From Limnomonas spitsbergensis (taxonomy: Eukaryota; Chlorophyta; Chlorophyceae; Chlamydomonadales): a stretch of DNA of 64,000 nt. The stretch is from assembly GCA_037349105.1 (NCBI GenBank), contig JAYJMM010000021.1, forward strand, positions 1,922,001 to 1,986,000, written 5' to 3'. The notes below the pieces were generated by a model, which searched no databases, was not told the DNA's origin, and saw nothing but the letters and a program-made list of their open reading frames with translations. Both the position numbers and the translations under genes were made by a program. Shown here one piece after another: positions 8,683 to 64,000 of the stretch. Each line of letters begins with the position of its first letter. Position 1 is the stretch's first letter.

Positions 8683-11600
8683 TCATGGTCTATCACACAT
8701 CACAGAGGCCAGAGATCTCAATTTCGAATGCCGAATCAGTGCTGCCCCAGTAGCCTCACAGCATTGGTGCTGAACATGCCTTTGTGGATTTTCTGATGCG
8801 TCATTAGGTGTGGCCAGTTCCGTGGCTTGACGTGGAGCTTGCGAGGCAGGCTCAGCAGCACTTGCTGTCTCCCTCCTCTCTGAGTCAATGTCATGCAGCC
8901 ACTCTCTCATGTCCTGAAGGTGCAACAGGAGGAGGTACAGCACAAGGAGGAAGTTCGGCATCCTCTTTGCAAGTGGAGGTGCACCCTGTAATAGGAGGCT
9001 CTCTCAGCTTCATTGCTCTTGAAATCCTGCGGAGCATAAGATTTGATACATGGGACAAGTGCCGAAGAAACAGTTCAAGCGTTAATTAACTTAACCACAT
9101 GGTGGAATGAACCAGTAGCCCCGTGGGACTTCCAGCCTGCCAACAACCACATCATGCAGCAAGGCATGGCATGCAATTGCAAAAGTAGGAAAAGCTTTCC
9201 TCTCAGACTTCAATACTATCACCCGTTGACCACAGCCCGAACCCCGCCAACAGCCTCGTCCTCTTCATATATTGCCAGGGAAGCCGCTCTCAGATTCCAA
9301 GGGGATTCCCTCTTCCCTCTCACCTGCAACGTGTCAATGTCTTGAAGTTTGGGGAGGGTGTCCAGGGGCGCAATAGTGAGACCAGCAGCAGCGGCCCTGG
9401 ATAATGTGTCCGACAGGACAGAGGAGGAACTCCACGCCATGTCCTGGGGTGCAGAAGGGTGGGAAAGGTGGAACGCGTAAGCCGTCCACATCAGGCATAT
9501 CATCATTGCGTCTAGATCACTTGGAAAGGAGGGTTGGCAAGACGCTAGCAGGCGCAGGCAGTCGCGTGCAGCGCTGACAAGAGCGAAGAGGGGCGAATGT
9601 GCGAACGATGAGCAGTCACAATGTGCTCCTGCAAAGCGTCAGCCTCCTGATGGTGATCAGTGTTTCTTTTCTCGTGATTCAGCTACCTGTCAGCTACACT
9701 CCGGCCTCCGGCCGAAGGCCCCATTTGTCGCCAGCCATGCTGCCTTGGCCACGAGTCATAGGCCTGCCCAAGTTTGGTCCCAATCGGGCCTCCGCGGCCG
9801 TGGAGCGGCCTGCCCAAGGTGGCCTTGTAGCCGAAAAAAGAAACACTTGTGGTGATGACCCTGCTCACCTGGACAAGGCTTGCCTTTACACTGTGTGCGG
9901 GGGGTCAGCCCTGTCATGGTGTAAAACTATCATGGTTTGGGTCTGGCTCACCTGGAAGAGGCTGGTCTCCACACGTTCAGCCAGCCCCAACAGATAGTAG
10001 CCGCCATCCTTAGCAGGGCCCACCACCATCTGATGCAGGCAAGACACACGAGGGGTTTAGGACAATAACCACATCAGGGAATGGACGTCATCCTTGGCAG
10101 GCCCACCTCCATACAAAGGGGATTGCATGGCCGCACGCATAAGGGTGGCAGTGCATGATGTGACAATCGCATCAGGGAATGGACGTCATCCTTGGCAGGC
10201 CCACCTACATACAAAGGGGATTGCATGGCCGCACGCATAAGGGTGGCAGTGCATGATGTGACAATCGCATCAGGGAATGGACGTCATCCTTGGCAGGCCC
10301 ACCTCCATACGAGGGGAATGCATGCATCAGGGATTGTGTTTTGAGCGGAAGGGCATACATGAGACGCAGCGGGGCCATGATGAGGGTACAAGAATGGCTC
10401 AGCTTTATAGGTCGTTAGGTACAATAGTTTGAAAACATGTGTTCCCCGTCTCTTCCCAGCCGCACATTGTGGCTGTCGAGCGCATTGGCTGCGGTGTCCA
10501 GGACTTGCGCGCTGATGTCAGGAATATCAGTCCCAATAATCAACACCTGTGAGGGTCGGAATTCAGGGACCAAGGATCAGCACCAGGGATGGCTGGAGGA
10601 TAGGGTGAGGGAGTTTTGTTTGTGAGCCATTGGGCTGCCAGGTTGAGATGTTTCTGTCTCGGCCGGCCTAGGCTCGGAAGCCCATCAGGTCATAGGCGCC
10701 TGAATTAGGCGGACCGCTGATGCAATACTGTTCATACCAGTCTTTTTGTAAGGCGATATATGGCCTCAGGCGACAAATACGGGCAACAAACATATAACTA
10801 AACTTTGAAATCTGTAGCCCAGTCGAAAAACGTCACTAGGGGGAGAGAGAGGGAGGGAGAGAGGGAGAGAGAAGGGGAGACAGAGTAGGGAAGAAGTGAT
10901 CTCGTCAGTGATCTTGCTGTGATCTCGCCAGGCTCAGCCAAGGACGAGCGGACTTTCTCTGGCCTGAAGTTTGTCAAGAAGGATCAGCCAAGAAGTAGTA
11001 CCTCAGCCATTCAGCCAATATAGTCAGCGCTGTAGGAGACTAGCAGTGTAGACATAAGCAGATAAAACCTCTTTCACTGACTGACCAACTTATTAATTGG
11101 ACAGTGTACATGTATCAATTGACTGACTGAGTGAGGGCAACTGACTGGGTCAATTGGCCATATTATAAGCATTTGCAGTGAAGAAATTCATAAATGCACC
11201 ACATGATGTCTCTGAGCCCTGGGGGCTTCGCCCCCGGACCCCCAGGCGGGGGGGCTCGGGCGCCCCACCGCACCCTCCCCACCGCTGCTTCGCCGCGGCG
11301 CTGGCGCGGTCACACTTTATTCACACTTGGGGCTACAACACAATTAATTGCTGAAACGAAGACAAAAAACTGGTTCATACTTAAAACACAATTTTGGCAC
11401 CCTTGTAGTTTTCCAACCCAGCAATTAAGGCCTCGCTTGCGTGGCCAACAAACCCAAGACTTTTACGAGCTGCATTGTGAGGTGGGTGGGTACCTTCCGA
11501 ATCCAGGGCTTTTACGAGCTCCATGATGAGGCGGGGGATGCCTCAAATACCCATATCTCTTTCGAGCTCCAAAGGCGGGGGGGATGCCTTAGGGATCCAT

Positions 11601-13302: not shown

Positions 13303-13400
13303 GGATCAATCTAGGAGCTGTCGCTTTGTGAGGGAGAATCTGCGACCGTGACATCGACGTCATCCAAGAACCGTACCATCGAACCCTAGCTTGAACCCCA
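13303..13400. promoter_or_regulatory. Short divergent promoter region
   Basis: Only 98 bp separate the ATG of the minus-strand glycosyltransferase from the first in-frame ATG of the plus-strand LPA2 gene. If LPA2 starts at 13491 the gap is 188 bp. A shared bidirectional promoter is inferred from spacing. No TATA box is obvious. Confidence 0.5.
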
Positions 13401-17097: not shown

Positions 17098-17327
17098 TAT
17101 GGATTTCACAGCAGTTGTACCATATGAAAGTCTTTGATGTCCCATGTCCGGCCCAAGCGCTAAACAAAAGTAGCAAAGTGTGAACCGCCACATGGGTGTG
17201 GGGCCCAGCTCCTGGTGTCGAGCTGCCCGAGGTTGAGGCGCTCATTGCCTGACCAATGCGCGCATCTTGGGGCGTGGACAGATTGAGATTCAGCAAGTTT
17301 CGCTCCAGCAAGCAAGTCGTCGTCGCG
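17098..17327. promoter_or_regulatory. Divergent promoter region
   Basis: The intergenic span is 230 bp between the GCK-domain start (17097, minus) and the dihydrouridine synthase start (17328, plus). It is 158 bp if the in-frame ATG at 17256 is used. A shared promoter is inferred from spacing only. Confidence 0.45.
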
Positions 17328-20300
17328 ATGTCGACCCGCAGCCCTCAGTTAGCCGGTCGGCAGCTTCTTAGCGTGGCCCCAATGATGGACTGGACGGACC
17401 TGCACTACCGACAGCTTGCTCGAATCATATCTCGAAGGACATGGCTGTGGACCGAAATGGTGTGTGCTGGCAACTGCCGCTTTCGCTTCCATTCGCTGGC
17501 GGACGTACACCGCGCGCACATGCCTGACGCTGCCTTGCATTCTGCTTGCGCCAGGTGGTTGACAAGACCATCTTGCACACACCCTTCCTTGAAAAGTTCC
17601 TCTGGTTCCCTCCTGAGCAGCACCCTATCGTGTGCCAGGTAGGTCTACTTGGCTTCAGCTGGAGATGGTTGTGGTGGGCCTAATGCATGCATCCTGACCC
17701 TTAGAGGCTGAGTGTAGTGGCCAGTGTCGCTAAAGAGCATACCTATCACGCGCCCTCCCATGCCTCCCATGTGCTGTCTCCCGCCCCATGGGCAAAATGC
17801 CCCCAGGGGCCCCAGCATGCCTATTATGCGCCCTCCCATGCCTCCCATGTGCTGACTCCCGTCCCATGGGCGAAATGCTCCCAGCATGGGTCCATAGACC
17901 CCTCTCCTGGGCTTGACTGCCCAGGCCTGTGTTTGACATCAGAGAGTCGTTGCCTGCATCTAGCAGTCTAGCAGTGCATTGATAACGTTGTTTGGTGCAA
18001 TTGGCGCACCGCTCCCCACTTCGTTGTCGACCCATCTTTAGACGTGTAGTAGGAGCCTCTGCAATATAGTACCATAACACCTCACTGTCTCACCCTCGCC
18101 TCCCTTTCCTTTTCCGTTCCCCACCAAACCTTTGCCTCACTCTTACAGAGCAAGCTCCCTGCCTCACTGCCCCGCCTCCCCCCTCGTCTCCCCCTTTCCC
18201 ATTCTTTCCTCCTCAGCTAGGCGGCAGTGACCCTGCTTTACTGGCAGCTGCAGTGAGGAAGGTGGTCGAATATGGCTATGATGAGATCAACCTCAACTGC
18301 GGTTGCCCTAGGTATAGGGGGGGGGGAGGGGCTGAACTGTATTAGGAGAGGATCTGGCCTAGGCACATTGAAGGGGGAGGCAGGATACCTGGCCCTGGTA
18401 CTGGGTGTGAGGAGGGACAGGGTGAGGAGGGGCAGGAGGAGAGGGTCCTTGACCTTGGCACAGGGAGGGAGAAGGGGTAGTAGGACAGCAGCCGGAGTGT
18501 GAATATCGGTATATGTGTTTGCATCTATGGCAAGGGGATGGGGTTGCTGCCGCACCTGGTCACCTTCAAGGAGCAATACAGGCTGAGGGGCTGCAATGCA
18601 ACCTTGGCCTCTCGCCTAGAACGAGGCGCACTGTCTAGGAAATCAGTTGTGTTGCCTTAAGAAATCAGTTGTGTTGCCTTAGGTAAGCCTGCTGCTTTAC
18701 AAATCTAGTCAGAATAGGCAAACATGGCTGGTGACCAGGCTTGTGACGTTCAAAGATCGCTGACAATGCTGTTTTGGAACTGGACAGGATGCTGGTGGAT
18801 CAATTGAGGTGATAGCCTCTAAACATAGGCTTGCTTTGCATGTGCAATGTGAAGACCGATGTCTGCCCTTTGAATTTCATGCGTGACACGCTCCTCCTTT
18901 ATGTGGCCTGCCCTAAGCCCGGCAGCACGTGGCCTTCTTGACCCTCTGCCTGCTTCTGGACCCGTTCCTGCTGCAGCGATCGAGTGGCTGGCGCCGGCTG
19001 CTTTGGGGCATCTCTCATGCTGCAGCCTGAGCTTGTGGCAGCATGCATGAAGGCCATGGCGGAGGCCAGCAACGGCGTCCCCGTCACGGTCAAGTGCAGG
19101 CAAGTCTAGCCTCTAGAGAGGAGAAGGAGAGGGAGGGGGGAGGGGGAATGCAGCATGTATGGAGCAATGGCATCCTCGTCACAGTTAAATGCAGGCAAGC
19201 CTAGCCTCTCGAGAGGAGAAGGAATGGGAGGGTTGAGGGTTTGCATGAAGGCTGTGGTGGAGACCAGGATCTGCGTCCCCATCACATACAAGTGCAGGTT
19301 AGTCTATAGAGGAAGAGGAGGAATAAGGAGGGGGTAGCTGGTGTGATGGTGTGTCCGTTTGAGCTGGGGCAAACGGGTCCAGCTCATGCAGACTCATATA
19401 CACACCACCTTCTCCCCCTGGGACGGGTTTTCAATGTGTCAAGAGTATTGCAGCGGTCTAAACCCTAAACCCTTAACCCTGTCTGCTGGCGGATGGGCAT
19501 GTTATCTGGATGCAAGCACCGCCCTCTCCAGCCCCCTCCTGGGGGCCTTCGGGTTAAGGCCAGCCTTTAAACCCTGAGCCTTGTGGCCCGTCACCCCTGG
19601 CACCTCTAAAAGGCGAGAATCCTCCAATCTGTCCCTAGGGGAAAGCTTGTCCCTGTCTGGTGTGTCTGTGAATGAGAGAGAGAGAGGGGGGGGTAATCAC
19701 CCCCCTCCCCCCTTGTTTATGAGAGAGAGAGAGAGGGGGGGGGGTAATCACCCCCCTCCCCCCTTGTTTATGAGAGAGAGGGGGGGGGTAATCACCCCCC
19801 TCCCCCCTTGTTTATGAGAGAGAGGGGGGGGGGGTAATCACCCCCCTCCCCCCTTGTTTATGAGAGAGAGAGGGGGGGTAATCACCCCCCTCCCCCCTTG
19901 TTTATGAGAGAGAGAGAGAGGGGGGGGGGTAATCACCCCCCTCCCCCCTTGTTTATGAGAGAGGGGGGGGGGTAATCACCCCCCTCCCCCCTTGTTTATG
20001 AGAGAGAGGGGGGGGGGGGGGGGTAATCACCCCCCTCCCCCCTTGTTTATGAGAGAGAGGGGGGGTAATCACCCCCCTCCCCCCTTGTTTATGAGAGAGA
20101 GGGGGGGGGGTAATCACCCCCCTCCCCCCTTGTTTATGAGAGAGGGGGGGGGGGGGAATCACCCCCCTCCCCCCTTGTTTATGAGGGAGAGAGGGGGGGG
20201 GGGTAATCACCCCCCTCCCCCCTTGTTTATGAGAGAGAGGGGGGGGGGGGGTAATCACCCCCCTCCCCCCTTGTTTATGAGAGAGAGAGGGGGGGTTATC

Positions 20301-23300
20301 ACCCCCCTCCCCCCTTGTTTATGAGAGAGAGAGAGAGGGGGGGGGGGTAATCACCCCCCTCCCCCCTTGTTTATGAGAGAGAGGGGGGGGGTAATCACCC
20401 CCCTCCCCCCTTGTTTATGAGAGAGAGGGGGGGGGGGTAATCACCCCCCTCCCCCCTTGTTTATGAGAGAGAGAGGGGGGGTAATCACCCCCCTCCCCCC
20501 TTGTTTATGAGAGAGAGAGAGAGGGGGGGGGGTAATCACCCCCCTCCCCCCTTGTTTATGAGAGAGGGGGGGGGGTAATCACCCCCCTCCCCCCTTGTTT
20601 ATGAGAGAGAGGGGGGGGGGGGGTAATCACCCCCCTCCCCCCTTGTTTATGAGAGAGAGGGGGGGTAATCACCCCCCTCCCCCCTTGTTTATGAGAGAGA
20701 GGGGGGGGGTAATCACCCCCCTCCCCCCTTGTTTATGAGAGGGGGGGGGGGGGGTAATCACCCCCCTCCCCCCTTGTTTATGAGGGAGAGAGGGGGGGGG
20801 GGGTAATCACCCCCCTCCCCCCTTGTTTATGAGAGAGAGGGGGGGGGGGGGGGGTAATCACCCCCCTCCCCCCTTGTTTATGAGAGAGAGAGGGGGGGTT
20901 ATCACCCCCCTCCCCCCTTGTTTATGAGAGAGAGGGGGGGTAATCACCCCCCTCCCCCCTTGTTTATGAGAGAGGGGGGGGTAATCACCCCCCTCCCCCC
21001 TTGTTTATGAGAGAGAGGGGGGGGGGGGGTAATCACCCCCCTCCCCCCTTGTTTATGAGAGAGAGGGTGGGTAATCACCCCCCTCCCCCCTTGTTTATGA
21101 GAGAGGGGGGGGGTAATCACCCCCCTCCCCCCTTGTTTATGAGAGAGAGGGGGGGGGTAATCACCCCCCTCCCCCCTTGTTTATGAGAGAGAGGGGGGGT
21201 AATCACCCCCCTCCCCCCTTGTTTATGAGAGAGGGGGGGGGGGGGTAATCACCCCCCTCCCCCCTTGTTTATGAGAGAGAGGGGGGGTAATCACCCCCCT
21301 CCCCCCTTGTTTATGAGAGAGGGGGGGGTAATCACCCCCCTCCCCCCTTGTTTATGAGAGAGAGGGGGGGTAATCACCCCCCTCCCCCCTTGTTTATGAG
21401 AGAGAGGGGGGGGGGGGGGGTAATCACCCCCCTCCCCCCTTGTTTATGAGAGAGGGGGGGGGGTAATCACCCCCCTCCCCCCTTGTTTATGAGAGAGGGG
21501 GGGGGTAATCACCCCCCTCCCCCCTTGTTTATGAGAGAGAGGGGGGGGGGGGGGGGGTAATCACCCCCCTCCCCCCTTGTTTATGAGAGAGGGGGGGGGT
21601 AATCACCCCCCTCCCCCCTTGTTTATGAGAGAGAGAGAGAGGGGGGGGGGGGTAATCACCCCCCTCCCCCCTTGTTTATGAGAGAGAGGGGGGGGGTAAT
21701 CACCCCCCTCCCCCCTTGTTTATTTGAGAGAGGGGGGGGGGGGTAATCACCCCCCTCCCCCCTTGTTTATGAGAGAGAGAGGGGGGGTAATCACCCCCCT
21801 CCCCCCTTGTTTATGAGAGAGAGAGAGAGGGGGGGGGGTAATCACCCCCCTCCCCCCTTGTTTATGAGAGAGGGGGGGGGGTAATCACCCCCCCCCCCTT
21901 GTTTATGAGAGAGAGGGGGGGGGGGGGGGGGGGGGTAATCACCCCCCTCCCCCCTTGTTTATGAGAGAGAGGGGGGGTAATCACCCCCCTCCCCCCTTGT
22001 TTATGAGAGAGAGGGGGGGGGTAATCACCCCCCTCCCCCCTTGTTTATGAGAGAGGGGGGGGGGTAATCACCCCCCTCCCCCCTTGTTTATGAGGGAGAG
22101 AGGGGGGGGGGGGGTAATCACCCCCCTCCCCCCTTGTTTATGAGAGAGAGGGGGGGGGGGGGGTAATCACCCCCCTCCCCCCTTGTTTATGAGAGAGAGG
22201 GGGGGTAATCACCCCCCTCCCCCCTTGTTTATGAGAGAGGGGGGGGTAATCACCCCCCTCCCCCCTTGTTTATGAGAGAGAGGGGGGGGGGGGGGGGGTA
22301 ATCACCCCCCTCCCCCCTTGTTTATGAAAGAGAGGGGGGGTAATCACCCCCCTCCCCCCTTGTTTATGAGAGAGAGGGGGGGGTAATCACCCCCCTCCCC
22401 CCTTGTTTATGAGAGAGAGGGGGGGGGGGTAATCACCCCCCTCCCCCCTTGTTTATGAGAGAGAGGGGGGGTAATCACCCCCCTCCCCCCTTGTTTATGA
22501 GAGAGGGGGGGGGGGGGGGTAATCACCCCCCTCCCCCCTTGTTTATGAGAGAGAGGGGGGGTAATCACCCCCCTCCCCCCTTGTTTATGAGAGAGGGGGG
22601 GTAATCACCCCCTCCCCCCTTGTTTATGAGAGAGAGGGGGGGTAATCACCCCCCTCCCCCCTTGTTTATGAGAGAGAGGGGGGGTAATCACCCCCCTCCC
22701 CCCTTGTTTATGAGAGAGAGGGGGGGGGGGGGTAATCACCCCCCTCCCCCCTTGTTTATGAGAGAGGGGGGGGGGGGTAATCACCCCCCTCCCCCCTTGT
22801 TTATGAGAGAGGGGGGGGGGGTAATCACCCCCCTCCCCCCTTGTTTATGAGAGAGAGGGGGGGGGGGGTAATCACCCCCCTCCCCCCTTGTTTATGAGAG
22901 AGGGGGGGGGTAATCACCCCCCTCCCCCCTTGTTTATGAGAGAGAGGGGGGGGGGGGGTAATCACCCCCCTCCCCCCTTGTTTATGAGAGAGAGGGGGGG
23001 GGGGGGTAATCACCCCCCTCCCCCCTTGTTTATGAGAGAGGGGGGGGGGGGTAATCACCCCCCTCCCCCCTTGTTTATGAGAGAGAGAGGGGGTAATCAC
23101 CCCCCTCCCCCCTTGTTTATGAGAGAGAGGGGGGGGGGGTAATCACCCCCCTCCCCCCTTGTTTATGAGAGAGAGAGGGGGGGGGGGGGGGGGGTAATCA
23201 CCCCCCTCCCCCCTTGTTTATGAGAGAGAGGGGGGGGGTAATCACCCCCCTCCCCCCTTGTTTATGAGAGAGAGGGGGGGGGGGGGGTAATCACCCCCCT

Positions 23301-26300
23301 CCCCCCTTGTTTATGAGAGAGAGGGGGGGGGTAATCACCCCCCTCCCCCCTTGTTTATGAGAGAGAGGGGGGGGGGGGTAATCACCCCCCTCCCCCCTTG
23401 TTTATGAGAGAGAGGGGGGGTAATCACCCCCCTCCCCCCTTGTTTATGAGAGAGAGGGGGGGTAATCACCCCCCTCCCCCCTTGTTTATGAGAGAGAGGG
23501 GGGGTAATCACCCCCCTCCCCCCTTGTTTATGAGAGAGAGAGGGGGGGTAATCACCCCCCTCCCCCCTTGTTTATGAGAGAGGGGGGGGGGGGGGGTAAT
23601 CACCCCCCTCCCCCCTTGTTTATGAGAGAGGGGGGGTAATCACCCCCCTCCCCCCTTGTTTATGAGAGAGAGAGGGGGGGTTATCACCCCCCTCCCCCCT
23701 TGTTTATGAGATAGAGAGGGGGGGTTATCACCCCCCTCCCCCCTTGTTTATGAGAGAGAGGGGGGGGGTAATCACCCCCCTCCCCCCTTGTTTATGAGAG
23801 AGAGGGGGGGGGTAATCACTCCCTTCCCCCCTTGTTTATGAGAGAGAGGGGGGGTAATCACCCCCCTCCCCCCTTGTTTATGAGAGAGAGGGGGGGGTAA
23901 TCACCCCCCTCCCCCCTTGTTTATGAGAGAGAGGGGGGGGGTAATCACTCCCCTCCCCCCTTGTTTATGAGAGAGAGGGGGGGGTAATCACCCCCCTCCC
24001 CCCTTGTTTATGAGAGAGGGGAGGGGGGGTAATCACCCCCCTCCCCCCTTGTTTATGAGAGAGAGGGGGGGGGGTAATCACCCCCCTCCCCCCTTGTTTA
24101 TGAGAGAGAGGGGGGGGGGGTAATCACCCCCCTCCCCCCCTGTTTATGAGATCATGTGAGTGTTTGCGTCTCTGTGTGGGTGGTTCCTCAGGGTTTTGTG
24201 TGAGGGTGTGACGGTGTGTGTGTTTCTCCGTCATAATCATGTGTGTGTCTCCCTCCTCAGGCTGGGTGTGGATGAGGTGGACAGCTATGAGCAGCTGCAC
24301 ACCTTTGTGAGAACCGTCTCGGAAGGCGCCCCGGTGCAGCACTTCATCGTGCATGCACGCAAGTGCTTCCTACAGGGACTCAACCCGCACCAGAACCGCA
24401 CGGTGCCGCCATTGAGGCACGAGTGGGTGTACTCTTTAAGGTGAGCCGGGGGAGGAGGAGGGGGGGGGGCAGGCTGGCCAGGTACAAATCTTGTGCATGG
24501 TGTACGGTGTGCTTTTGGTTTGTTCATGAATCCTGAACCTATGATTACGTGATGTCAGGAATCAGGACTGGCATTGTGCATGATGAAAGGGGTATATTAT
24601 GTAAAGCAAATACGGTAGTCTCTTGTAGGATATAAAAACGACCTATTATGGACAGCACTTGACATAAGAAGAACATGATATTGGGGTGGACTGGCGATGG
24701 TGGCATGCCCTCAGTTACCTCACTCCCTCTGCACCCTCCCACCCGGACCTGTCCAGTGCATCCCCTCCCCCTGCCCTTCCCCCTCTGCACCCTCCCACCC
24801 GGACCTGTCCAGTGCATCCCCTCCCCCTGCCCTTCCCCCTCTGCACCCTCCCACCCGGACCTGTCCAGTGCATCCCCTCCCCCTGCCCTTCCCCCTCTGC
24901 ACCCTCCCACCCGGACCTGTCCAGTGCATCCCCTCCCCCTGCCCTTCCCCCTCTGCACCCTCCCACCCGGACCTGTCCAGTGCATCCCCTCCCCCTGCCC
25001 TTCCCCCTCTGCACCCTCCCACCCGGACCTGTCCAGTGCATCCCCTCCCCCTGCCCTTCCCCCTCTGCACCCTCCCACCCGGACCTGTCCAGTGCATCCC
25101 CTCCCCCTGCCCTTCCCCCTCTGCACCCTCCCACCCGGACCTGTCCAGTGCATCCCCTCCCCCTGCCCTTCCCCCTCTGCACCCTCCCACCCGGACCTGT
25201 CCAGTGCATCCCCTCCCCCTGCCCTTCCCCCTCTGCACCCTCCCACCCGGACCTGTCCAGTGCATCCCCTCCCCCTGCCCTTCCCCCTCTGCACCCTCCC
25301 ACCCGGACCTGTCCAGTGCATCCCCTCCCCCTGCCCTTCCCCCTCTGCACCCTCCCACCCGGACCTGTCCAGTGCATCCCCTCCCCCTGCCCTTCCCCCT
25401 CTGCACCCTCCCACCCGGACCTGTCCAGTGCATCCCCTCCCCCTGCCCTTCCCCCTCTGCACCCTCCCACCCGGACCTGTCCAGTGCATCCCCTCCCCCT
25501 GCCCTTCCCCCTCTGCACCCTCCCACCCGGACCTGTCCAGTGCATCCCCTCCCCCTGCCCTTCCCCCTCTGCTGCAGGCGGGACTTCCCGGACCTCAGGT
25601 TTAGCCTCAATGGCGGCGTGCAGAGCAGCACGGAGGCCAAGGCAGCCATCCTGTATGGGGGACCCTTCCCAACGCCTGGCCATGTGGAATCCCGCCTGGG
25701 GGAGCAGCTAGCTAAGCAGCAGCTAGCTAAGCAGCAGCAGCAGCAGGACCAGGACGCCGCAGCGGGGCAGGCGGGGGCGACAGCATCGGCGGCTGACTGT
25801 GACACCGAGGCGCAAGCGGGGAGGGCAGCGGAGCCTGTTGCTGCCTGTGGCACTGGGGCTGACTGCGTCGGTGATAAGGACCAGCTCCCTAGGACATCAG
25901 ATACTTTAAATGGCGACTGCGGGAGAGAGGCAGGTGGCGGCGAGGGCGGGGAGCCAGCAGGCCCCAGTTACATCACGATAAATCCGTCCGACGGGCTGAT
26001 CGAGGGGGTCATGATTGGGCGGGCAGCGTACAGCGATCCGTGGGCCTGCCTGTCGGACGCTGACCGAGCGGTGTTTGGGGAGCCGAGCAATCCTGTGGCC
26101 AACAGGCGGGAGGTGAGGGGGGCCCGTGCCTTGCCTGCGCATGGGACTAGGGGCTGCAGTGCTTGCTGATGGGTGCTTCTGCTGGCGTGGGTGAACAGCG
26201 TGCGCACCGCACCTCTGGGTGGTTGGGAGCCGTGGATCCTTGCTGCAGGCACAGGGTGCAGGGGCCCTTTATCCATGCTTCCTTGCTGCAGGCACAGGGT

Positions 26301-27255
26301 GCAGGGGCCCTTTATCCATGCTTCCTACGAGCCTACCGGTATACGATGTGACTTATTTGTAGCAATTGCATTTACTTGTTGCAATTGCATTTTTTTTTAA
26401 CAATTGCTTCTATATGTAGCCTCCATGCCTGATGCATGCCCGTCGAGTGTGCAGCCCTGGCTGTGCGCCGCGCCACAGAGGGTTCGAACAGATGCTGACT
26501 ACAGAAATGCAAACATGCGTGTGTTGTGGAAACGACCCTCGTGTCCTGATCCCCAACGAGTGCCTCTCTCAATCCCTCTCGGCGCTGGGCCAGGTTCTCG
26601 AGCAGTATGTCCAGTACGCAGACTCTGTGATTGGCAAGTTCGGCACCAAGCCGGACGGCTACCGTGAGCCAAGTGTCCGGCTGTTGTTCAAGCCGCTGTT
26701 GGGGCTGTTCCATGCTGAGGCGGGATCGAAGCGGTGGAAGGCAGCTGTGGACGGTGTGCTCAAGCAGGTGGGTGTCCGGTTAGCAGCCTCAGGTTGAGCT
26801 TGCCCATGTTACATGCCTAGTCCCCTTTGCTTGTCTGCTCACCTACAATCCTTACCTTACTGTGATCATTGTGTCATTGCGACCGCTACCTGCACTCCCT
26901 AAGGCTTCCCAGCTGACATGAGTTATTTGCCGCACCCTCCTTGTCTCCTCTGGGACAGGATCCTCCGTCTGTTGCCCATGTACTGGCGCTGACGCTGCAT
27001 CATATCCCAGAGGAGGTGCTGGATGCGCCGCCGAGAGTGACGGATGAGCTGCCCCAGTGCTCCTTTGGGGACATGGCTGCCTCACAGGACAGGGCGGGGT
27101 TCAGCCAAACCCTCACTGCGCTCAAGCGAGCAGCGATGGACGCGGCCGGGCCGCATCATTCGGGCGCACGTGGAGGGAAGCGGTCCGCAGCGGAGCGGCC
27201 TGCTGCGCTTGAGGATGGCACGGCACCTCCCCGTGCGCCGGTGATGGCCTCATGA
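17328..27255 (+). CDS. DusA-type tRNA-dihydrouridine synthase
   Basis: Eight exons: 17328-17459, 17555-17638, 18217-18311, 18977-19099, 24261-24440, 25578-26112, 26594-26767 and 26959-27255. The product is 539 residues. The enzyme would reduce uridine to dihydrouridine in tRNA D-loops with FMN and NADPH. Motifs: APMMDWTD at 17-24 (FMN site), LGGSDP at 73-78, NLNCGCPSDR with catalytic Cys102, VKCRLGVD with Lys143, HARK at 176-179, NRTVPPLRHEWVY, and GVMIGRAAYSDPW from about residue 348. This is the DusA subgroup, usually about 330-350 residues. The excess is a Gln/Ala-rich insert within exon 6 (about residues 240-340) and a 98-residue C-terminal extension. Intron 4 uses a GC donor (AG|GCAAGT) and is 5.16 kb, mostly satellite. 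ATG 17256 is in frame upstream and could supply an organelle presequence. Confidence 0.9.
19042..19310 (+). repeat. Three degenerate tandem copies of the exon 4 donor junction
   Basis: The real exon 4 end (GTCACGGTCAAGTGCAG, then GCAAGTCTAGCC) is followed by two decayed copies. One ends GTTAAATGCAG|GCAAGCCTAGCC with its donor at 19195. The other ends ACAAGTGCAG|GTTAGTCTA with its donor at 19298. Periods are about 95 and 103 bp. GCATGAAGG and GGAG-rich segments are also shared. Confidence 0.85.
19455..19480. repeat. Short interstitial telomere-like tract
   Basis: GTCTAAACCCTAAACCCTTA followed by ACCC, the complement strand of TTTAGGG-type repeats, about three degenerate units. TTTAAACCC recurs near 19566. 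It lies in intron 4 of the dihydrouridine synthase gene, just before the large satellite. Confidence 0.6.
19675..24150. repeat. About 100-copy hairpin minisatellite
   Basis: The unit is about 40-50 bp: a G run of 6-20, TAATCA, CCCCCCTCCCCCC, TTGTTTATG and a GA run. G-run and GA-run lengths vary between units, while the C-rich half is nearly invariant. The G run and C run flank TAATCA, so each unit can fold as a hairpin on either strand. Rare variants include TTATCA, AATCACTCCC and TTATTTGAG. It fills intron 4 of the dihydrouridine synthase gene. The Arg/Gly/Pro-rich frames inside it are artefacts. Confidence 0.97.
24725..25574. repeat. 56-bp minisatellite, about 15 copies
   Basis: Near-perfect 56-bp units begin CCCTCTGCACCCTCCCACCC, continue GGACCTGTCCAGTGCATCCC and end CTCCCCCTGCCCTTC. 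The array runs directly into the acceptor of dihydrouridine synthase exon 6, whose junction also reads CCCTCTGC ... CAG|GCGGGACTTCCCGGACCT. The unit length is not a multiple of three, so the long open frames on both strands rotate and are artefacts. Confidence 0.97.
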
Positions 27256-43200: not shown

Positions 43201-46200
43201 ATCCCAAGTAGCATAATGTCCAAACACTTGCCCCACACATCGGCCCCGCCAGCAGAGCCGCGACTCACCTGCTTAATCCCCAAACACTTGCCCCACACAT
43301 CGGCCCCACCAGCAGAGCCGCGCCTCACTTGCATAATGTCCAAACACTTGCCCCACACATCGGCCCCGCCAGCAGAGCCGCGACTCACCTGCTTAATCCC
43401 CAAACACTTGCCCCACACATCGGCCCCACCAGCAGAGCCGCGCCTCACTTGCATAATGTCCAAACACTTGCCCCACACATCGGCCCCGCCAGCAGAGCCG
43501 CGCCTCACTTGCATAATGTCCAAACACTTGCCCCACACATCGGCCCAGCCAGCAGAGCCGCGCCTCACTTGCGTAATGTCCAAACACTTGCCCCACACAT
43601 CGGCCCAGCCAGCAGAGCCGCGCCTCACCTGCATGATTCCAAATCGCTTGCCCCACACCGCCATATGCAATGGTGTCAGGCCTGCCACATTGCCCTGGTT
43701 CACAGCAGCCCTGCAGCAACGGGGGAGGGGACCGGCATGATGAGGACAGGTTGGGAACAGCAGGATACATCTTGGGGGACATGGACATGGACACGGGCAC
43801 CTGTCTTCAGGAAGGGCCGGGGGGGTAGCCGGTTTTTGCCGGGAAGGATATTTTGTTAGGCCGGCCCAAGCCGGCCGGCGCTCGAAAAGTGGCCGGCAGT
43901 GTGGATTTTTTTTATCACTTCAAAAAAACGGAATTAACCGTTTTGTTCTCTCTGACTAGTACTGACAGGTACCTGCCCAGCAGTCTGTCAATACTAGTAT
44001 ATCGGTTGCGCACATTGAAATGAACATGGCCAATACCGCATGGCCATGCACTTTTAGGGTGACCTTCACGGACCGGTATTAACCGGTACTAGACTATCGA
44101 CCAGCCACGCACACTGACAGACGTCTGCGAAGGTGGGACTGGCGCACAGGCAGGGCAACGAAGCTGTCCACGCTTGACAGACATTCGCAAATGGATGGAT
44201 CAATACTTGGTTTCCGAACGAGCCCTAAGCAAGCGAGCCCCAGAGTCCCACACGGAGTGAAATTTGTGACCTGGGATATAGACAAGATCATTTATTTACC
44301 AAATGAAGGAATCGTTGCTTTTCTTGCGTGCGATTCCCAGTAATGGGCGTAAGCGTGTCCCGACCGAAAGTCGACTTTGGACGTGGAGCAACGACACGCA
44401 CGCTTGCAAAACACCATCAGAAATCGTAGTGCCACCGATGTACAGCTTTAGACATGCCAAGCAGTCTCAGGCGTCAAGAGACGGGTGCGTGAGTTATCGG
44501 CGATTCGGTTGTTGGAACAGACGGACGGACGGACAAAAATGGCAGGTGTGGATCCCTTAATGCTGCTATAGACAGCACTCGGTTTTATCAGTCTTTTCGA
44601 GGGAAGTTCTTGCCGGGGAGACTGTGGGAGAATGTAAAAAAACCTCGCCGCCGGGGGCGTTGTCAGCCAAACCCCCATTTTCGCCGGGGTATGCCGGAAA
44701 AGGGGTTCGCTGGCTCACCGGCCGAAGGCCCATTTCCCCCGGCGCCAGGCCCGGCGTCCCTTCCCTGCCTCTCTTACAACTAACGAACTTGCAATAGGCA
44801 GGTGGTGACCCAGCAGCAAGAAAAAAAGAAAGCTACGCCCGTGGGAGGCGTGAGAGCTAAGGAAACAGCGCAGCCTGGGCCAAAGCCACTTCCACGTTAC
44901 CCAGCAGCAACAGGAGCGCAGCAGACAGGACGCACCCAACAAGCACGTTGCCTGAGGTCAATGCGAATGAGAAAATGCCCCTCACTCCACGCAAACGACA
45001 TATCAGTAAATTCCCATCTCCACTCGTGTTCATCTGACCTGGCCGCCACCCCTGCATCCACTCCCTCTGGCAAGGCAAAGTCCAGCAGCATGAACGCGAT
45101 GGACAGGTGCCCCCACCAAGCCGCTATGTGCAGTGGGAGATTTCCCCGGAGGTCAGGAATGGTGCGGTCGGCGCCGTTAGTGATCAGCAGCCTATATCAG
45201 CGGGGGGGAGGCTGCTGTTGGTCCAGCATCCACACATCTGTACGCACCCTCACAACTAATGTCTAGTGCACTTGAAGTATATAGCATGACATCTTACTCC
45301 AGAGCACAGCCTTGCACTTAACTGTGTGTGCCTCCGTAGGACACTACTCTTCATCCATTGCACACTTTATGTACATCAGCATGCCATCTCAGACCTAGCT
45401 GTCCTAAGGGACCTTACAGCATTCACCCTAAAGCCTTGTTTCCGAAAGCTGTCAGACTCCCAGAGGACAAGTGCACAGAAGGCAGCAGGGCAGTGTCATG
45501 AGTGGCCCAGCGAGGAGGCAAGCTGAGGATGCCAGGGGGTGAGCATGGTTGGCGGCAATGCTTCAGGGATACTCCTTCATCAGCACTGGTAATGGAATTA
45601 TTAATATATGATGGAGGTCCGCCCCAGCCGCCCAGCTGTAGCAGCTGCCTACCTGGCGGCATAATCAGTGTGCCCCAAGGCTGCCTACCTGGCACAATCA
45701 GTGTACCCCAAGGCTGCCTACCTGGCACAATCAGTGTGCCCCAAGGCTGCCTACCTGGCACAATCAATGTGCCCCAAGGCTGCCTACCTGGCACAATCAG
45801 TGTGCCCCAAGGCTGCCTACCTGGCATAATCAGTGTGCCCCAAGGCTGCCTACCTGGCACAATCAGTGTGCCCCAAGGCTGCCTACCTGGCACAATCAGT
45901 GTGCCCCAAGGCTGCTGCCATGAAGAGAGGCGTCTGGCCTCTCACGTCCTGAGGGTGAGGCAGCATTGCCAATGGAGCAAGTTAAGAGGCGAGGGATGAA
46001 GGTGAGAGGAGGGCCTGAGGGGTGACATGAGACGACAGGCGTGCACGCCATGAGACGAGAGGCATGCATGCCATGAACATCAGGCATGCAAACCCTGAAA
46101 TGGCATGCATTTCAGCTGGGTGGGCCAAGGGTCTATAGTTGTTCCGTTTGCCATGCATGCATCCACCAAGGCGCCTTTCAAAAAGGGCAAGTCACCTGAG

Positions 46201-47538: not shown

Positions 47539-47539
47539 G

Positions 47540-49240: not shown

Positions 49241-49244
49241 ATAA

Positions 49245-52235: not shown

Positions 52236-52238
52236 TCA

Positions 52239-55200: not shown

Positions 55201-58200
55201 TCTAACTCTGTCCCTTTCGACACTTGCCTGTATTCATAGTGCTACCCTCCCCACTGAGTGGCCTCCGAAACCTGACCTGCATCGGATGTCGTGTAAGATG
55301 CTGTTTTCCCTCCCGCCTCGCACTTTGCGGTGAATGAGGATCCCGTCTGGCGGCATGCCCGCCCGCTGCTGATGCCAAGTCAGCTCCACAGCCAACACGG
55401 CCTTCCAGGGAAGCTGCCAGATGACCTGAAAGGGAGGCGGGAAGAAACAGGGGCAATGTGGGGTGGGTGTGAGGCGGGTGGGAGCAGGGGCAGGATGGGG
55501 TGGGTGGGAGCCTGGGAGGAGGATGGGTAGGAGCAGGGTGGGGGCAGGAGCAGCGGCAGAAGCAGGTGCATGTTAGGGTGCGGGGGTGGTAAGAGCAGGA
55601 TCGGAGTCAGGGGAAGGGTGTGTAGGAGCAGGAACAGGGAGCAGCAGCAGCCCTTGGTTCATTGCGGCTGTTGCCTCTCAATCAGAGCCCGGGCTGGATG
55701 GGCTCAGAATATTTAAGATGAACCCTAGGGGGTCATAGCCTTGTCTCACCTCTGCACCTGACACCTGCTGCCCCACCTCACTTCTTTACCTGCTGCCCTG
55801 CATCACTTCTCCACCTGCTGCTCTGCTCCCCTGTCTCACCTCTCCACCTGGCACTTCCGTGACATGAGTCAGCTCCCCGGTCATGACACGCGACTGCAGC
55901 CAAATGAAATCTGTGCAGGATGGGAGAGCAGAGGGGGCCACATCAGGGGTGGTGGCAGCGTGAAATAAACCAAAATCAAATGAAACCCAGCTCCATCAAA
56001 CCCTGTCATTCTCTACAGGTTTACAGCCTTAGTGGAGACATGCAAAACCTCCTCCAAGGTTGACACCTGTCTGAATGTTATTCTCACCTCCCTTTTCACC
56101 CACCTCCCTGCACCCACACTCTCATCCCCTGCACCCCTCCCCCTCATCCCTGTAAGCACCCACCCCCTCCTTCCCCCCGCAGCCCCCCTGCCTCCCCCCT
56201 TGCCCCTTCACCTACCCACCCCCCTTGCCCTTTCACCCCCCTCCTCATCCCGTCCCCTCTGCGCACCCACCCTGCGCGTCCAGCAGCATAACTCTCTTGT
56301 TGGTGACCACCAGCACGTGCGGGCTTGTCATCACAAAGTGGTGTTCATACAGGTCGTGGCGGAAGGGGAAGTCTGAGCTCATTCCGCTCCCGCCCCCATT
56401 GCCCGCCCCGGCGCGGGGACCGCCCAGCCGCTGCAGCGCGGCCGGCATAAGGGTGGGCAGCTGCGGCATGCCCGTCTCGTACAACAGCGACTGACCCAGC
56501 GCACCATGGAGGTTGAATGGGCGCAGCACACGATCGCCTGCGCAACCAGGTCCGGGATGAAGCGGGTGGGGTTAAGGGGACAAGGACAGAGAGGAGGAAG
56601 GGGCACAGCACACGATCGCCTGCACAACCAGGTAGGTCTGGGGATGAAGCGGGTGGGGTCGGGGGATAAGGACAGAGAGGGGAAAGGGGGGACAGGGCGG
56701 GTGTGGGTGTGTTGGGAGAGGGGGCTTAGGGGGACAAGGACAGATCGAGGTACACAGGCTTGAGGATGGGGAAGTGTGGGGTCAAATCTCTGCGTAGGCA
56801 AGAGGGTATGTGTGCCCATCAGCCCTGTCCAGGTGCAGGGGAGAAATAGTGCCTGGGCGGCAGGGTGCCAGGGTGCCAGGGTGCCAGGGTGCCGGGGTGC
56901 CAGGGTGCCAGGGTGCCAGGGCGTCAGGGCATCAGGGCATCAGGGTGCCAGGGCGTCAGGGCGCCATGGTGCCAGGGTGCCAGGGTGCCAGGGCGTCAGG
57001 GTGACAGGGTGCCAGGGCGTCAGGGCGTCAGGGCGTCAGGGCGTCAGGGTGCCAGGGTGCCAGGGTGCCAGGGTGCCAGGGCGTCAGGGCGTCAGGGCAT
57101 CAGGACATCAGGGCATCAGGGCATCAGGGCGTCAGGGTGCCAGGGTGCCAGGGCGTCAGGGCGTCAGGGTGCCAGGGTGCCAGGGTGCCAGGGTGCCAGG
57201 GTGCCAGGGCGTCAGGGCGTCAGGGTGCCAGGGTGCCAGGGTGCGAGGGCGTCAGGGCGTCAGGGCGTCAGGGTGCCAGGGCGTCAGGGCGTCAGGGCGT
57301 CAGGGTGCCAGGGCGTCAGGGTGCCAGGGTGCCAGGGCGTCAGGGCGTCAGGGCGTCAGGGTGCCAGGGTGCCAGGGTGCCATGGCGTCAGGGTGCCAGG
57401 GTGCCAGGGTGCCAGGGTGCCAGGGTGCCAGGGTGCCTGGGCGTCAGGGTGCCAGGGCGCCAGGGCGCCAGGGTGCCAGGGTGCCAGGGTGCCAGGGTGC
57501 CAGGGCGTCAGGGTGCCAGGGTGCCAGGGTGCCAGGGTGCCAGGGTGCCAGGGCGTCAGGGTGCCAGGGTGCCAGGGTGCCAGGGCGCCAGGGCGCCAGG
57601 GCGCCAGGGCGTCAGGGCGTCAGGGCTTCAGGGTGCCAGGGTGCCAAGGTGCCAGGGCGTCAGGGTGCCAGGGTGCCAGGGCGTCAGGGCGTCAGGGCGT
57701 CAGGGTGCCAGGGTGCCAGGGCGCCAGGGCGCCAGGGTGCCAGGGTGCCAGGGTGCCAGGGCGTCAGGGTGCCAGGGTGCCAGGGTGCCAGGGCGTCAGG
57801 GCGTCAGGGTGCCAGGGTGCCAGGGCGTCAGGGTGCCAGGGTGCCAGGGAGCCAGGGTGCCAGGGTGCCAGGGTGCCAGGGCGTCAGGGCGTCAGGGTGC
57901 CAGGGTGCCAGGGTGCCAGGGTGCAAGGGCGTCAGGGCGTCAGGGTGCCAGGGTGCCAGGGCGTTAGGGCGTCAGGGTGCCAGGGTGCCAGGGCGTCAGG
58001 GTGCCAGGGTGCCAGGGTGCCAGGGCGTCAGGGCGCCAGGGTGCCATGGCGTCAGGGCGTCCGGGTGCCAGGGTGCCAGGGCGTCAGGGTGCCAGGGTGC
58101 CAGGGCGTCAGGGCGTCAGGGTGCCAGGGTGCCAGGGCGTCAGGGTGCCAGGGTGCCAGGGCGTCAGGGCGTCAGGGCGTTAGGGTGCCAGGGTGCCAGG

Positions 58201-61200: not shown

Positions 61201-63095
61201 ATCAAGGAGCGTGCCAGGGAGAGCCCACCCTCCACCACACCGTCACCGACGCCTGTGACGTGCTGCTGTCCAGCACCACCACCACCACCTCCCGCCTCCC
61301 GGGAGCTCCCCCCGCCCCCGCGTGAAGCCCCGCTTCCGCCGGGCCCCACAGAGCCGCTACTCCTAGCGCCGCCTCCCCCTTTCGAGCTCCCTCCCCCTCC
61401 TCCTCCTCCTCCTCCTCCTCCTCCCCCTCCGCCGTTGCCGCTCCCGCGGCTTCCCCCCGAGTCAGCCAGGGAGGACACGAGGTGGCTCCCAGCCGCCAGG
61501 ATCTTGGAGGTGGATCCAAACACGCCGTAGTTCCGGAGCAGGCTGAAGGCAATGCTGAGCATGCGCTGCTGCAGCTGTTCTGTTATCTGCAGGGAAGCAG
61601 GTGTGGAGGTGTAAGTGTGAGAGGGTGTGAAGGTGTGAGGGTGGAGTCAAGCACGCGCAACTGCAACTGATCCTCCATCTGCAGGGGTCTAGGTGTGAAT
61701 GTGTGAAGGAGTGTAAAGGTGTGAAGGCCATGTCCAGTATGCCCTGCTGCAGCTGATCCATGTGCAGGGAGCAGGGGTGAAGGGATCAAAGTGTGAATGG
61801 GGGTATGGAGGGAGAGTCCACTCCCCCCCCCACACACCTGCTCGAATGAGAACCTTTCACAAACCCTCAGACCTTGATTCCTTCACACATAGCCCTGCTC
61901 CCATCTCTAGGGCTGGTATATACCGTATATTTCACTGGTATATACATGTATTTACATATACGGTATAAGCAATACGTGTACGGTGTACGGTAAGCGGTAC
62001 ACGGTAAGGTATATGGGCAACCAGCTGAACCCCTCCCCTCCCCCCCCCTCTGCTGCTAGCTCTCACCTGCCTCAGCAGCACCTCCTTGGTCTCCGTGATG
62101 CGCTCGCCCTCGATACCCGGCAGGGTCAGGGCCAGGTCCTCCATGTTAGCAAACTCCAGGCCCAGGCTCAGCCACTGAAGAAGGAGGGTGGGGGAGCGGG
62201 GGAGGAGGGCAGGGGAGCAAAAGGTGAGCGGGACGTGGGGGGAGGTAGGTGAGCGGGAGATGAGGGCAGGGGAGCAAAAGGTGAGCGGGAGGTGGGGGGA
62301 GGTGGGTGAGCGGGAGATGAGGGCAGGGGAGCAAAAGGTGAGCGGGAGACAAGGGCAGGTGAGTGGGGGGGAGGGCGGGTGAGCCGAAAATAAAGGCTCT
62401 AATTTGCGTGTGTGGACAGGTCCATAAAAAAGGGGTCGTCCGTTGAGTGGGGCCTCCATCCCACCTCGTCTCATCCACTGAAGGGGGAGCACCGGGGCAC
62501 AGAAGAGGACAGCCTTTCTTGAGGGTCTGGGTAGGCTAAGGTGGATATGGCAGTCAAATAAGATTGGGTAAAATCCCTCCCAGAGTCATGTACGACATAA
62601 TCGACATAGTAAGGTGTGGCGTTTCTGTTCAAACTGTTTGTAGCATTTCAAAACTAAAACAGCAATATGGAGTTGCACCTGAGCAGCCAGCCTGAGGCCC
62701 TGTGCCTGCATTTCTCATCCCCCAGGGGAAGCTTCCCTCTCCTAGCGCTCGCCCTTGATCAGGGGCCCCTGACCAAGGGCTGGGTCCATCAGCAGCCACA
62801 CCAGCAGCCACACCAGCAGCGTGTGAAACATGTCCAGTCCCGCGATTGCTTGCACTCCAAGCTTCTGGTGTTCTTTGCCAACAGGTCTCTTCCAGCGTTC
62901 TGTATGACGGACGCCCCTCTCCCCTTGCTCAAGGCACACACGCATGTGGAGCCATCCACCAGGGGCTCTTTCAGTGCTTTGCGTGTTTCACCTCATGAGG
63001 TCCCCGCTCACCTGGCTGGAGGAGCGCGGTCGAGTGGAAACGTCCGTCTTGAAGCTGAGACGCAGCGGGAGATCCTCCATGTTCAGCAGGTCAAT
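52239..63095 (-). CDS. VPS13-type lipid-transfer protein, C-terminal part (5' partial)
   Basis: Eleven minus-strand exons: 63095-63012, 62174-62067, 61586-61197, 61026-60889, 58490-58391, 56537-56271, 55910-55840, 55425-55277, 54439-54018, 53277-53171 and 52475-52239. Phases close over 2073 nt, giving 690 residues. LLNMEDLPLRLSF and FANMEDLALTL match the VPS13 amphipathic C-terminal region. GAVGIVSKPVQGAERGGVSG and FFGGVLRGVAGAV match the ATG2_C-like helices; RLPRPFTGDRVLRPFNLHG is the RxPR..D.vlRPyn motif. LVVTNKRVMLLDAQ, VIWQLPW and ILIHRKV form the PH-like domain. Two later segments carry WRPVGPPGYVALGDVAVVG and IWKPLPPRGYVEMGC, a repeated WxPxPPxGY-type domain. VPS13 proteins bridge membranes and move lipids in bulk. 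A poly-Gly tract interrupts exon 61586-61197. The intron after 58391 uses a GC donor. More of the gene lies beyond 64000. Confidence 0.88.
52743..52803 (+). repeat. Interstitial telomere-like TTTAGGG tract
   Basis: GGGTTTAGGGCTTAGGGTTT, then AGGGTAAGGGTTTAGGGT, about eight degenerate heptamers of the plant/green-algal telomere type. It is inside the last VPS13 intron. Confidence 0.8.
53535..54017 (-). repeat. About 70-bp purine-rich minisatellite after the VPS13 exon 9 donor
   Basis: Six to seven degenerate units on minus contain GAGAGTGGCAGGTGGGGACA, G-runs and GAGGGAGG(G/A)GA. The array begins at the exon 9 donor (GGGAG|GTGGGACAGGGGGGAG), and most units contain a CAG|GTGGGG donor-like step. 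One strand is nearly pure purine, so frames stay open artificially. Confidence 0.85.
56857..58226 (+). repeat. 8-bp G-rich minisatellite, about 170 copies
   Basis: Octamers CAGGGTGC and CAGGGCGT alternate irregularly, with rarer CAGGGCAT, CAGGGCGC and single changes. GGG recurs every 8 bases (G3-N5-G3-N5), a potential G-quadruplex on the plus strand. It lies in the VPS13 intron between exons 58391 and 56537. Collagen-like frames here are artefacts of 24-base periodicity. Confidence 0.97.
58697..60392. repeat. 24-bp two-state minisatellite, about 70 copies
   Basis: Units of AATACCTTGCAGTGCTGTAC + AAAC are almost perfectly conserved, except that one base is either G or C (GCTGTAC or GCTCTAC). 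Roughly a quarter of units have the C form. It lies in the VPS13 intron between exons 60889 and 58490. The 560-630 residue frames on both strands are artefacts. Confidence 0.98.
61587..61790 (-). repeat. Two decayed upstream copies of a VPS13 exon start
   Basis: On minus, the real exon start (TGCAG|ATAACAGAACAGCTGCAG) is preceded by TGCAGATGGAGGATCAGTTG at about 61680 and TGCACATGGATCAGCTGCAG at about 61765. Translations MDQLQQGILDMAF and EDQLQLRVLDS echo the real EQLQQRMLSIAF. Each copy is followed by TCACAC-rich intron sequence. Confidence 0.85.
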
Positions 63096-64000
63096 CTGAT
63101 GAGAGAGAGGGGGCAAGGAGCAGGTCAATCTGATGAGAGAAAGGGGGCAAGGAGCAGGTCATTCTGATGAAAAGGGGGGAGCGGCAGAGAGCAGGTCCAC
63201 ATGAAGAGGATGGTATTTACAAATCAGCAATAAAGGAGGTCCACCATGTCAAGCAGATCCCCTCAGGGGAGGAGGAGGGGGGACGGGGCCAACCAGATGG
63301 GGCGTGGAGAGTGGGTGGGTCCACCATGTCAAGCAGATCCCCTCAGGGGAGGAGGAGGGGGGACGAGGCCAACCAGATGGGGCGTGGAGAGTGGGTGGGT
63401 CCACCATGTCAAGCAGATCCCCTCATGGGAGGAGGAGGGGGGACGAGGCCAACCAGATGGGGCGTGGAGAGTGGGTGGGTCCACCATGTCAAGCAGATCC
63501 CCTCAGGGGAGGAGGAGGGGGGACGAGGCCAACCAGATGGGGCGTGGAGAGTGGGTGGGTCCACCATGTCAAGCAGATCCCCTCAGGGGAGGAGGAGGGG
63601 GGACGGGGCCAACCAGATGGGGCGTGGAGAGTGGGTGGGTCCACCATGTCAAGCAGATCCCCTCAGGGGAGGAGGAGGGGGGACGGGGCCAACCAGATGG
63701 GGCGTGGAGAGTGGGTGGGTCCACCATGTCAAGCAGATCCCCTCAGGGGAGGAGGAGGGGGGACGGGGCCAACCAGATGGGGCGTGGAGAGTGGGTGGGT
63801 CCACCATGTCAAGCAGATCCCCTCAGGGGAGGAGGAGGGGGGACGGGGCCAACCAGATGGGGCGTGGAGAGTGGGTGGGTCCACCATGTCAAGCAGATCC
63901 CCTCAGGAGGGGAGGAGGGGGGACGGGGCCAACCAGATGGGGCGTGGAGAGTGGGTGGGACCTCCATGTCAAGCAGATCCCCTCAGGGGAGGAGGAGGGG
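63012..64000 (-). repeat. Acceptor copies and 80-bp minisatellite upstream of a VPS13 exon
   Basis: The exon acceptor CTCATCAG|ATTGACCTGCT has further copies 32-33 bp and about 64 bp upstream (near 63128 and 63160). From 63241 to the window end, an 80-bp unit repeats about 9.5 times with few changes (minus: GGGGATCTGCTTGACATGGT, GGACCCACCCACTCTCC). Its CTGCTTGACATGG core resembles the exon's CTGCTGAACATGG. The array runs off the window. Confidence 0.9.

What the first reader, a model, noticed from the sequence alone, without database searches (positions are those of the whole stretch)
9324..63170. Recurrent tandem duplication of splice junctions across the window
At more than a dozen exon-intron junctions in six genes (glycosyltransferase, dihydrouridine synthase, ABC1K, FtsZ-like, ankyrin-RING, VPS13), the adjacent tandem repeat is a copy of the junction: exon edge plus donor or acceptor. 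Copies range from 2 (decayed) to about 15. Ordinary minisatellites should not prefer splice sites. Tandem duplication of AGGT-bearing exon sequence is a known hypothesis for intron gain; here the duplications sit on existing junctions and expand introns. This may be a genome-wide process in this alga, for example replication slippage or R-loop-linked repair at splice sites. It could supply redundant or competing splice sites.
Basis: partly seen in the sequence, partly recalled or inferred. Interest (0 to 1): 0.9.

Follow-up and report, generated by a model that had tools for sequence, protein, structure and literature searches.

The report
Junction copies from blind tandem duplication
In this likely green-algal genome, 44 of 456 splice junctions checked carry a nearby copy of their own exon edge and splice signal, most likely because short DNA stretches are duplicated in tandem without regard to splice sites and mainly those that introns can hide survive.

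Summary
The copies are real; the claimed preference for splice junctions is not. Of seven window arrays placed against exons, four cross a junction (DUS donor, ABC1K acceptor, ankyrin donor, VPS13 C-terminal acceptor), one stops 5 nt short and two lie inside introns. The other listed junctions stay unplaced. I mapped 229 introns by homology (222 in dynein heavy-chain genes, 7 in DUS). Tandem arrays cross a junction 20 times; uniform placement predicts 24.5 (p = 0.88). A more sensitive search finds exon-edge copies at about 12% of junctions, almost never inverted or in non-adjacent introns, while intron-interior windows are copied more often (17-21%). Copied exon is at most 62 nt in 44 junction-spanning copies. 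Most likely, tandem duplication is frequent and blind to splice sites, and selection on exons filters the outcome. The copies leave decoy splice sites: 39 of 44 keep the dinucleotide and 25 of 44 score at least as well as the real site. Such boundary-spanning repeats are known from amphioxus as 'mirages'. One result is unexplained: 48 arrays end within 15 nt of a junction without crossing, against 20.7 expected. No RNA was available.

The parts
19068..19239 (+). 95-nt repeat, 1.8 copies by TRF (a third, decayed copy is visible by eye to about 19340): last 32 nt of DUS exon 4, its GC donor and the intron start
   Evidence: exon edge fixed by three homologues
18977..19099 (+). DUS exon 4, whose donor (GCAAGT at 19100) is copied
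19727..24151 (+). 42-nt array, about 98 copies, inside DUS intron 19100-24260; not at a junction
24725..25572 (+). 56-nt array, 15.1 copies, pyrimidine-rich, ends 5 nt before the DUS acceptor AG at 25577; no exon letters
26237..26326 (+). 43-nt repeat inside DUS intron 26113-26593; acceptor-like but not a junction
31210..31278 (-). 35-nt repeat over the acceptor of an ABC1K exon (exon starts at 31215)
   Evidence: the join RFFQ/EMDYQLEAHN lies within the ABC1 domain
32814..32991 (-). 62-nt array inside an ABC1K intron (about 32741-33075), 73 and 84 nt from its ends; not a junction
   Evidence: ORF reading only
43211..43658 (-). 60-nt array, 7.5 copies: last 30 nt of an ankyrin exon plus donor (first intron base 43628) and 30 intron nt
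56519..56689 (-). 86-nt repeat, 2.0 copies, over the acceptor of an exon with a VPS13_C match (exon start inferred at 56537)
63085..63170 (-). 34-nt repeat, 2.5 copies, that reads as an acceptor copy (11 exon nt); not validated by a homologue
   Evidence: reading only

Best explanation
Junction copies here are most likely the by-product of frequent local tandem duplication of stretches of roughly 30-250 nt that ignores splice sites, with selection on exons deciding which duplications remain. A duplication wholly inside an exon would alter the protein and is mostly lost (inferred). One inside an intron is hidden. One that straddles a junction leaves the outer junction next to intact coding sequence, and the extra exon edge and splice signal fall inside the intron (shown by sequence in 42 of 228 introns), where splicing is predicted to remove them provided the outer site is used. 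Duplications that carry more than about 60 nt of exon are missing, which suggests that a decoy with much exon context would be harmful (inferred). Some copies later expand into arrays; in the ankyrin array the intron part has stayed uniform while the exon part differs from it.
For: Uniform-placement test: 203 arrays, 20 cross a junction, 24.5 expected, p = 0.88; donors 11 against 12.3, acceptors 9 against 12.2. Sensitive test: exon edges 28/228 and 26/228, intron-interior windows 101/588; second run 29/228, 27/228 and 125/592. Direction and place fit tandem duplication: reverse complement 0/228 and 0/228, non-adjacent introns 0/181 and 0/181 in the first run; at most 1 in any such cell of the other three runs. 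The copying rate falls smoothly into the exon on both sides: donor 0.152 just inside the intron, 0.139, 0.093, 0.026, 0.007, 0.013 going into the exon; acceptor 0.126, 0.119, 0.086, 0.033, 0.007, 0.000. Exon share of the unit is at most 0.57 in 19 crossing arrays of period 20 or more, where 7.9 above that are expected. Splice dinucleotide intact in 39 of 44 copies, 35.1 expected from the identity of the rest, so no sign that the decoys are kept or removed for their signal.
Against: 48 arrays end within 15 nt of a junction without crossing it by 6 nt, 20.7 expected, none of 20,000 simulations as high; counting both kinds, 68 reach a junction against 45.1. Blind placement alone does not predict this pile-up. 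It holds for arrays of balanced composition too (14 against 6.2, p = 0.0023), so the purine and pyrimidine tracts at intron ends do not account for all of it. The expected slower divergence on the exon side is not established: the drop in identity, 0.833 to 0.667, is no larger than in an interior control, 0.846 to 0.718, p = 0.41. Introns come from homology, not RNA, and 222 of 229 are from one gene family.
Confidence: 0.72

Rival explanations
1. Splice junctions attract duplication, for example through R-loops or slippage at splice signals.
For: Array ends cluster within 15 nt of junctions on the intron side, 48 against 20.7; several such arrays repeat the donor itself, as in L024 and g4.
Against: Crossing is not enriched, 20 against 24.5. 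Exon edges are copied less than interiors. Windows at the intron ends, 41/226 and 38/227, are copied no more often than interior windows, 77/396.
Confidence: 0.08
2. The pile-up of array ends just inside junctions comes from the purine-rich intron start and the pyrimidine-rich intron end, which favour repeat formation, on top of blind duplication elsewhere.
For: Pyrimidine share rises from 0.379 in the first 30 nt to 0.724 in the last 30; arrays abutting donors average 0.33 and those abutting acceptors 0.74, interior ones 0.54. TRs near intron ends are reported for green algae (PMC3887541, abstract and passages seen).
Against: Arrays of balanced composition also show the excess, 14 against 6.2.
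Confidence: 0.4
3. The array ends pile up because homogenisation within an array stops at the exon, which is held by selection, so that old junction-crossing arrays come to end at the junction.
For: Ankyrin array: copies 1-6 match the junction unit at 0.90-1.00 in the intron part but 0.60-0.70 in the exon part; L029 shows 0.90 against 0.40. Boundary units of amphioxus mirages are excluded from homogenisation (PMC3087553, passages).
Against: Most of the other nine crossing arrays with at least 2.5 copies do not show it.
Confidence: 0.25
4. The copies are kept because they regulate splicing as competing sites.
For: 25 of 44 decoys score at least as well as the real site.
Against: Shifts show no clear preference for multiples of three (18, 11, 15) and splice dinucleotides are about as intact as the rest, 39 against 35.1.
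Confidence: 0.04
5. The introns themselves arose by tandem duplication of AGGT-bearing exon sequence.
For: None found here; a known model (PMC2891723 and PMC3087553, passages).
Against: Exon tail against intron tail and exon head against intron head: 0 of 228 introns reach 18 identities of 28 or 29; means equal the shuffled ones. Old gains would have decayed beyond this test.
Confidence: 0.02

Closest known systems
Amphioxus 'mirages' (Adh3, BflGb6, BflGb9; PMC3087553, passages seen)
   Same: Tandem repeats spanning exon-intron boundaries, both 5' and 3'; units of tens to about 160 nt; many copies keep AG or GT signals.
   Different: A likely green alga, not a lancelet; seen here in 42 of 228 introns and tested against a placement null. 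Normal splicing, haplotype length change and somatic instability were shown there and could not be tested here.
Tandem repeats near intron ends in C. reinhardtii and V. carteri (PMC3887541, abstract, passages and one section seen)
   Same: Repeats concentrate toward intron ends in green algae; here array ends also cluster within 15 nt of junctions.
   Different: That study took units of 1-50 bp and positions scaled to intron length and, in the passages I saw, did not ask whether exon letters are included; the word 'splice' was not found by the search of its text, though 'splicing' appears.
Intron gain by tandem duplication of proto-splice sites (PMC2891723, passages; PMC4974935, listing only)
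   Same: Tandem duplication of sequence that carries splice signals.
   Different: Here existing introns are lengthened; no intron shows the gain signature.
Introners (PMC9860276, listing only)
   Same: Repeated sequence linked to introns.
   Different: Copies stay in the adjacent intron; 0 of 181 in non-adjacent introns of the same gene in each of two comparisons (first run).

Membership tests
Mirage (boundary-spanning minisatellite of amphioxus) | Tandem repeat unit spans an exon-intron boundary | tested here: met
   20 crossing arrays in 229 introns; 4 in the window
Mirage (boundary-spanning minisatellite of amphioxus) | Both donor and acceptor boundaries affected | tested here: met
   11 donors, 9 acceptors; 22 and 22 copies
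Mirage (boundary-spanning minisatellite of amphioxus) | Copies keep splice signals | tested here: met
   39 of 44
Mirage (boundary-spanning minisatellite of amphioxus) | Inner units homogenised, boundary unit excluded | tested here: inconclusive
   Clear in the ankyrin array and L029, not in most of the others
Mirage (boundary-spanning minisatellite of amphioxus) | Regular splicing of the mRNA is kept | not testable with these tools
   No RNA held
Mirage (boundary-spanning minisatellite of amphioxus) | Copy number differs between haplotypes | not testable with these tools
   One assembly only
Splice-site-targeted duplication | Arrays cross junctions more often than random placement | tested here: not met
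   20 against 24.5, p = 0.88; exon edges below interiors
Splice-site-targeted duplication | Array ends concentrate at junctions | tested here: met
   48 against 20.7, intron side only; other causes possible
Intron gain by tandem exon duplication | Intron tail resembles exon tail, intron head resembles next exon head | tested here: not met
   0 of 228
Introner | Dispersed copies in many introns | tested here: not met
   0 of 181 and 0 of 181 exon edges match a non-adjacent intron in the first run, at most 1 of 181 in the others; only exon edges were tested, not whole introns

The most novel reading that the evidence does not exclude
This alga's introns hold a natural library of duplicated junctions in which otherwise near-identical splice sites compete, and the cap of about 60 nt on copied exon is the footprint of exon context deciding which site wins: copies with more exon are used, break the protein and are purged.
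Probability: 0.3. Interest if true: 0.62.

Novelty: new member of a known kind. Interest (0 to 1): 0.42.

Why it matters
If right, minisatellites in introns do not need a link to splicing to explain copies of splice junctions; blind duplication and exon selection suffice. It also gives a large natural set of duplicated splice sites, several at each chosen shift and strength, with which the old question of how the spliceosome picks among near-identical sites could be tested in one genome. In the eight literature searches answered I saw no report of boundary-spanning repeats in an alga or of a placement test; listings are capped and subscription papers are mostly missing.

Tried and rejected
Rejected: junction preference; intron gain by tandem duplication; a slower exon-side divergence as proof of constraint, because an interior control shows about the same drop; in-frame shifts as a sign of use. 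A first, smaller test with two dynein genes and DUS gave 10 crossings against 10.3 expected among 81 arrays.

Left out before counting: introns found with one of two references only (12 in g1, 11 in g2); with fewer than four of five references (48 in g3, 34 in g4); introns of the short D6 loci with fewer than 10 of 14 references, nearer than 120 nt to a locus end, or in five loci that overlap g1-g4. The minus-strand D6 loci were first aligned on the wrong strand and redone. Arrays of period under 10 were left out. One intron too near a sequence end was dropped for the sensitive test (228 of 229). Of 54 significant exon-edge matches, 10 were dropped because the realignment did not span the splice dinucleotide. 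One search aligned introns with themselves and was replaced. One search failed and was mended.

Not done: VPS13 and ABC1K exon maps by family search, a composition-preserving shuffle of introns, comparison with another alga, RNA.

Full report
What was asked. I separated two questions: are the copies there, and do repeats prefer junctions?

Source. The window is G000:C21:1922001-1986000 of a 260.2 Mb assembly in 124 contigs. The DUS protein finds Chlamydomonas eustigma at 63% identity over 99% of its length and Haematococcus lacustris at 77% over 47%; a dynein piece finds H. lacustris at 90%.

The window. TRF gives 81 rows. I wrote a spliced protein-to-DNA aligner and fixed DUS with three homologues; all seven introns I use are found with the C. 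eustigma protein, six of them with all three, the seventh (26113-26593) with two of three. In DUS one of eight arrays touching introns crosses a junction, the GC donor after exon 4; the 56-nt array stops 5 nt before the acceptor; the 43-nt 'acceptor' repeat is inside an intron. The ABC1K, ankyrin and VPS13 joins were read from ORFs and checked with Pfam: ABC1 (7.9e-34), Ank (8.9e-15) and VPS13_C (2.9e-06), and for ABC1K also against solved ABC1 proteins, best 1.7e-12. For VPS13 only the exon was checked; its acceptor position is inferred. Other listed junctions were not placed.

The sample. A search for dynein heavy chains, chosen for their length and not for repeats, gave 32 matches that I group into 16 loci. 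Four genes were taken in large stretches and the rest as short loci. Dynein references came from two protein searches. I kept introns on which references agree: 42 and 58 (two of two references), 42 and 33 (at least four of five), 47 from short loci (at least 10 of 14) and 7 of DUS: 229 in all, 224 GT and 5 GC donors, median 419 nt.

Test one. TRF arrays of period 10 or more touch these introns 203 times, in 131 introns. If the duplicated unit falls anywhere that overlaps the intron, with other expansions taken out, 24.5 should cross a junction by 6 nt or more on both sides; 20 do (p = 0.88). Donors 11 against 12.3; acceptors 9 against 12.2. For periods of 40 or more, 17 against 17.8.

Test two. 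TRF misses decayed pairs, so I compared 30-nt exon edges with the adjacent intron, using the edges of other junctions as the null. In the first run 28 of 228 donors and 26 of 228 acceptors stand out. Reverse complements give 0 and 0; non-adjacent introns 0 of 181 twice; exon windows 45-75 nt inside give 1 of 228. Interior intron windows give 101 of 588. Four runs with other seeds and window lengths agree: edges are copied less than interiors, Fisher p = 0.018, 0.0002, 0.004, 0.0008; windows in one intron are not independent, so these p values are approximate. Copies are therefore frequent, local and direct, as tandem duplication would give, but do not favour junctions.

Shape. Going into the exon the rate falls from 0.139 and 0.119 at the edge to 0.026 and 0.033 at 38-62 nt and at most 0.013 beyond (151 donors, 151 acceptors). 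In 44 junction-spanning copies the exon part is at most 62 nt, medians 33 and 30. In 19 crossing arrays of period 20 or more the exon share is at most 0.57, while 7.9 above that are expected. I read this as selection against copies with much exon; decay and array turnover may add to it.

Decoys. 44 copies in 42 of 228 introns span the splice dinucleotide. It is intact in 39, 35.1 expected from the identity of the rest. By simple site models 31 score above the tenth percentile of real sites and 25 at least as high as their own real site; shifts modulo three are 18, 11, 15. Whether any is used is unknown.

What does not fit. 48 arrays end within 15 nt of a junction without crossing it by 6 nt, against 20.7; those that cross or reach number 68 against 45.1. 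Introns run from purine-rich to pyrimidine-rich, and arrays at the ends share that bias, but balanced arrays show the excess too (14 against 6.2). In the ankyrin array and in L029 the exon part of the unit differs from the array more than the intron part does, as if turnover stopped at the exon; most other multi-copy arrays do not show this. An apparent slower divergence on the exon side of the 44 copies is matched by an interior control (p = 0.41) and is not claimed.

Known relatives. Boundary-spanning minisatellites were named 'mirages' in amphioxus; there RT-PCR suggested that regular splicing is kept and haplotypes differ in copy number (PMC3087553, passages). Repeats near intron ends were reported for C. 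reinhardtii and V. carteri (PMC3887541, abstract, passages and methods section). The intron-gain signature is absent in 228 introns.

Limits. 222 of 229 introns are from one gene family; junctions are homology-based; no second genome and no RNA were at hand; the null assumes uniform duplication within and across an intron.

Noticed in passing
19727-24151: 42-nt array of about 98 copies whose unit holds a run of G, TAATCA and a run of C, so each unit could form a hairpin.
   Followed up: no
56849-58227 and 58689-60393: An 8-nt array (172 copies) and a 24-nt array (71 copies); ORFs of several hundred residues run through the second in both strands and through the first on the plus strand.
   Followed up: no
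52745-52800: Short telomere-like AGGGTTT repeats inside the contig.
   Followed up: no
229 sampled introns: Introns shift from purine-rich (pyrimidine share 0.379 in the first 30 nt) to pyrimidine-rich (0.724 in the last 30), for the 213 longer than 170 nt.
   Followed up: partly
19100; 229 sampled introns: Five of 229 introns have GC donors, among them the DUS donor that is duplicated.
   Followed up: partly
43211-43658: The ankyrin array has a 60-nt unit and an open frame through its copies, so use of inner donors would stay in frame.
   Followed up: no
L039-L043 (C122:57001-107000, minus strand): A dynein heavy chain gene with N-terminal Kelch-like exons; its best hits with names include flagellar outer-arm dyneins.
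   Followed up: no
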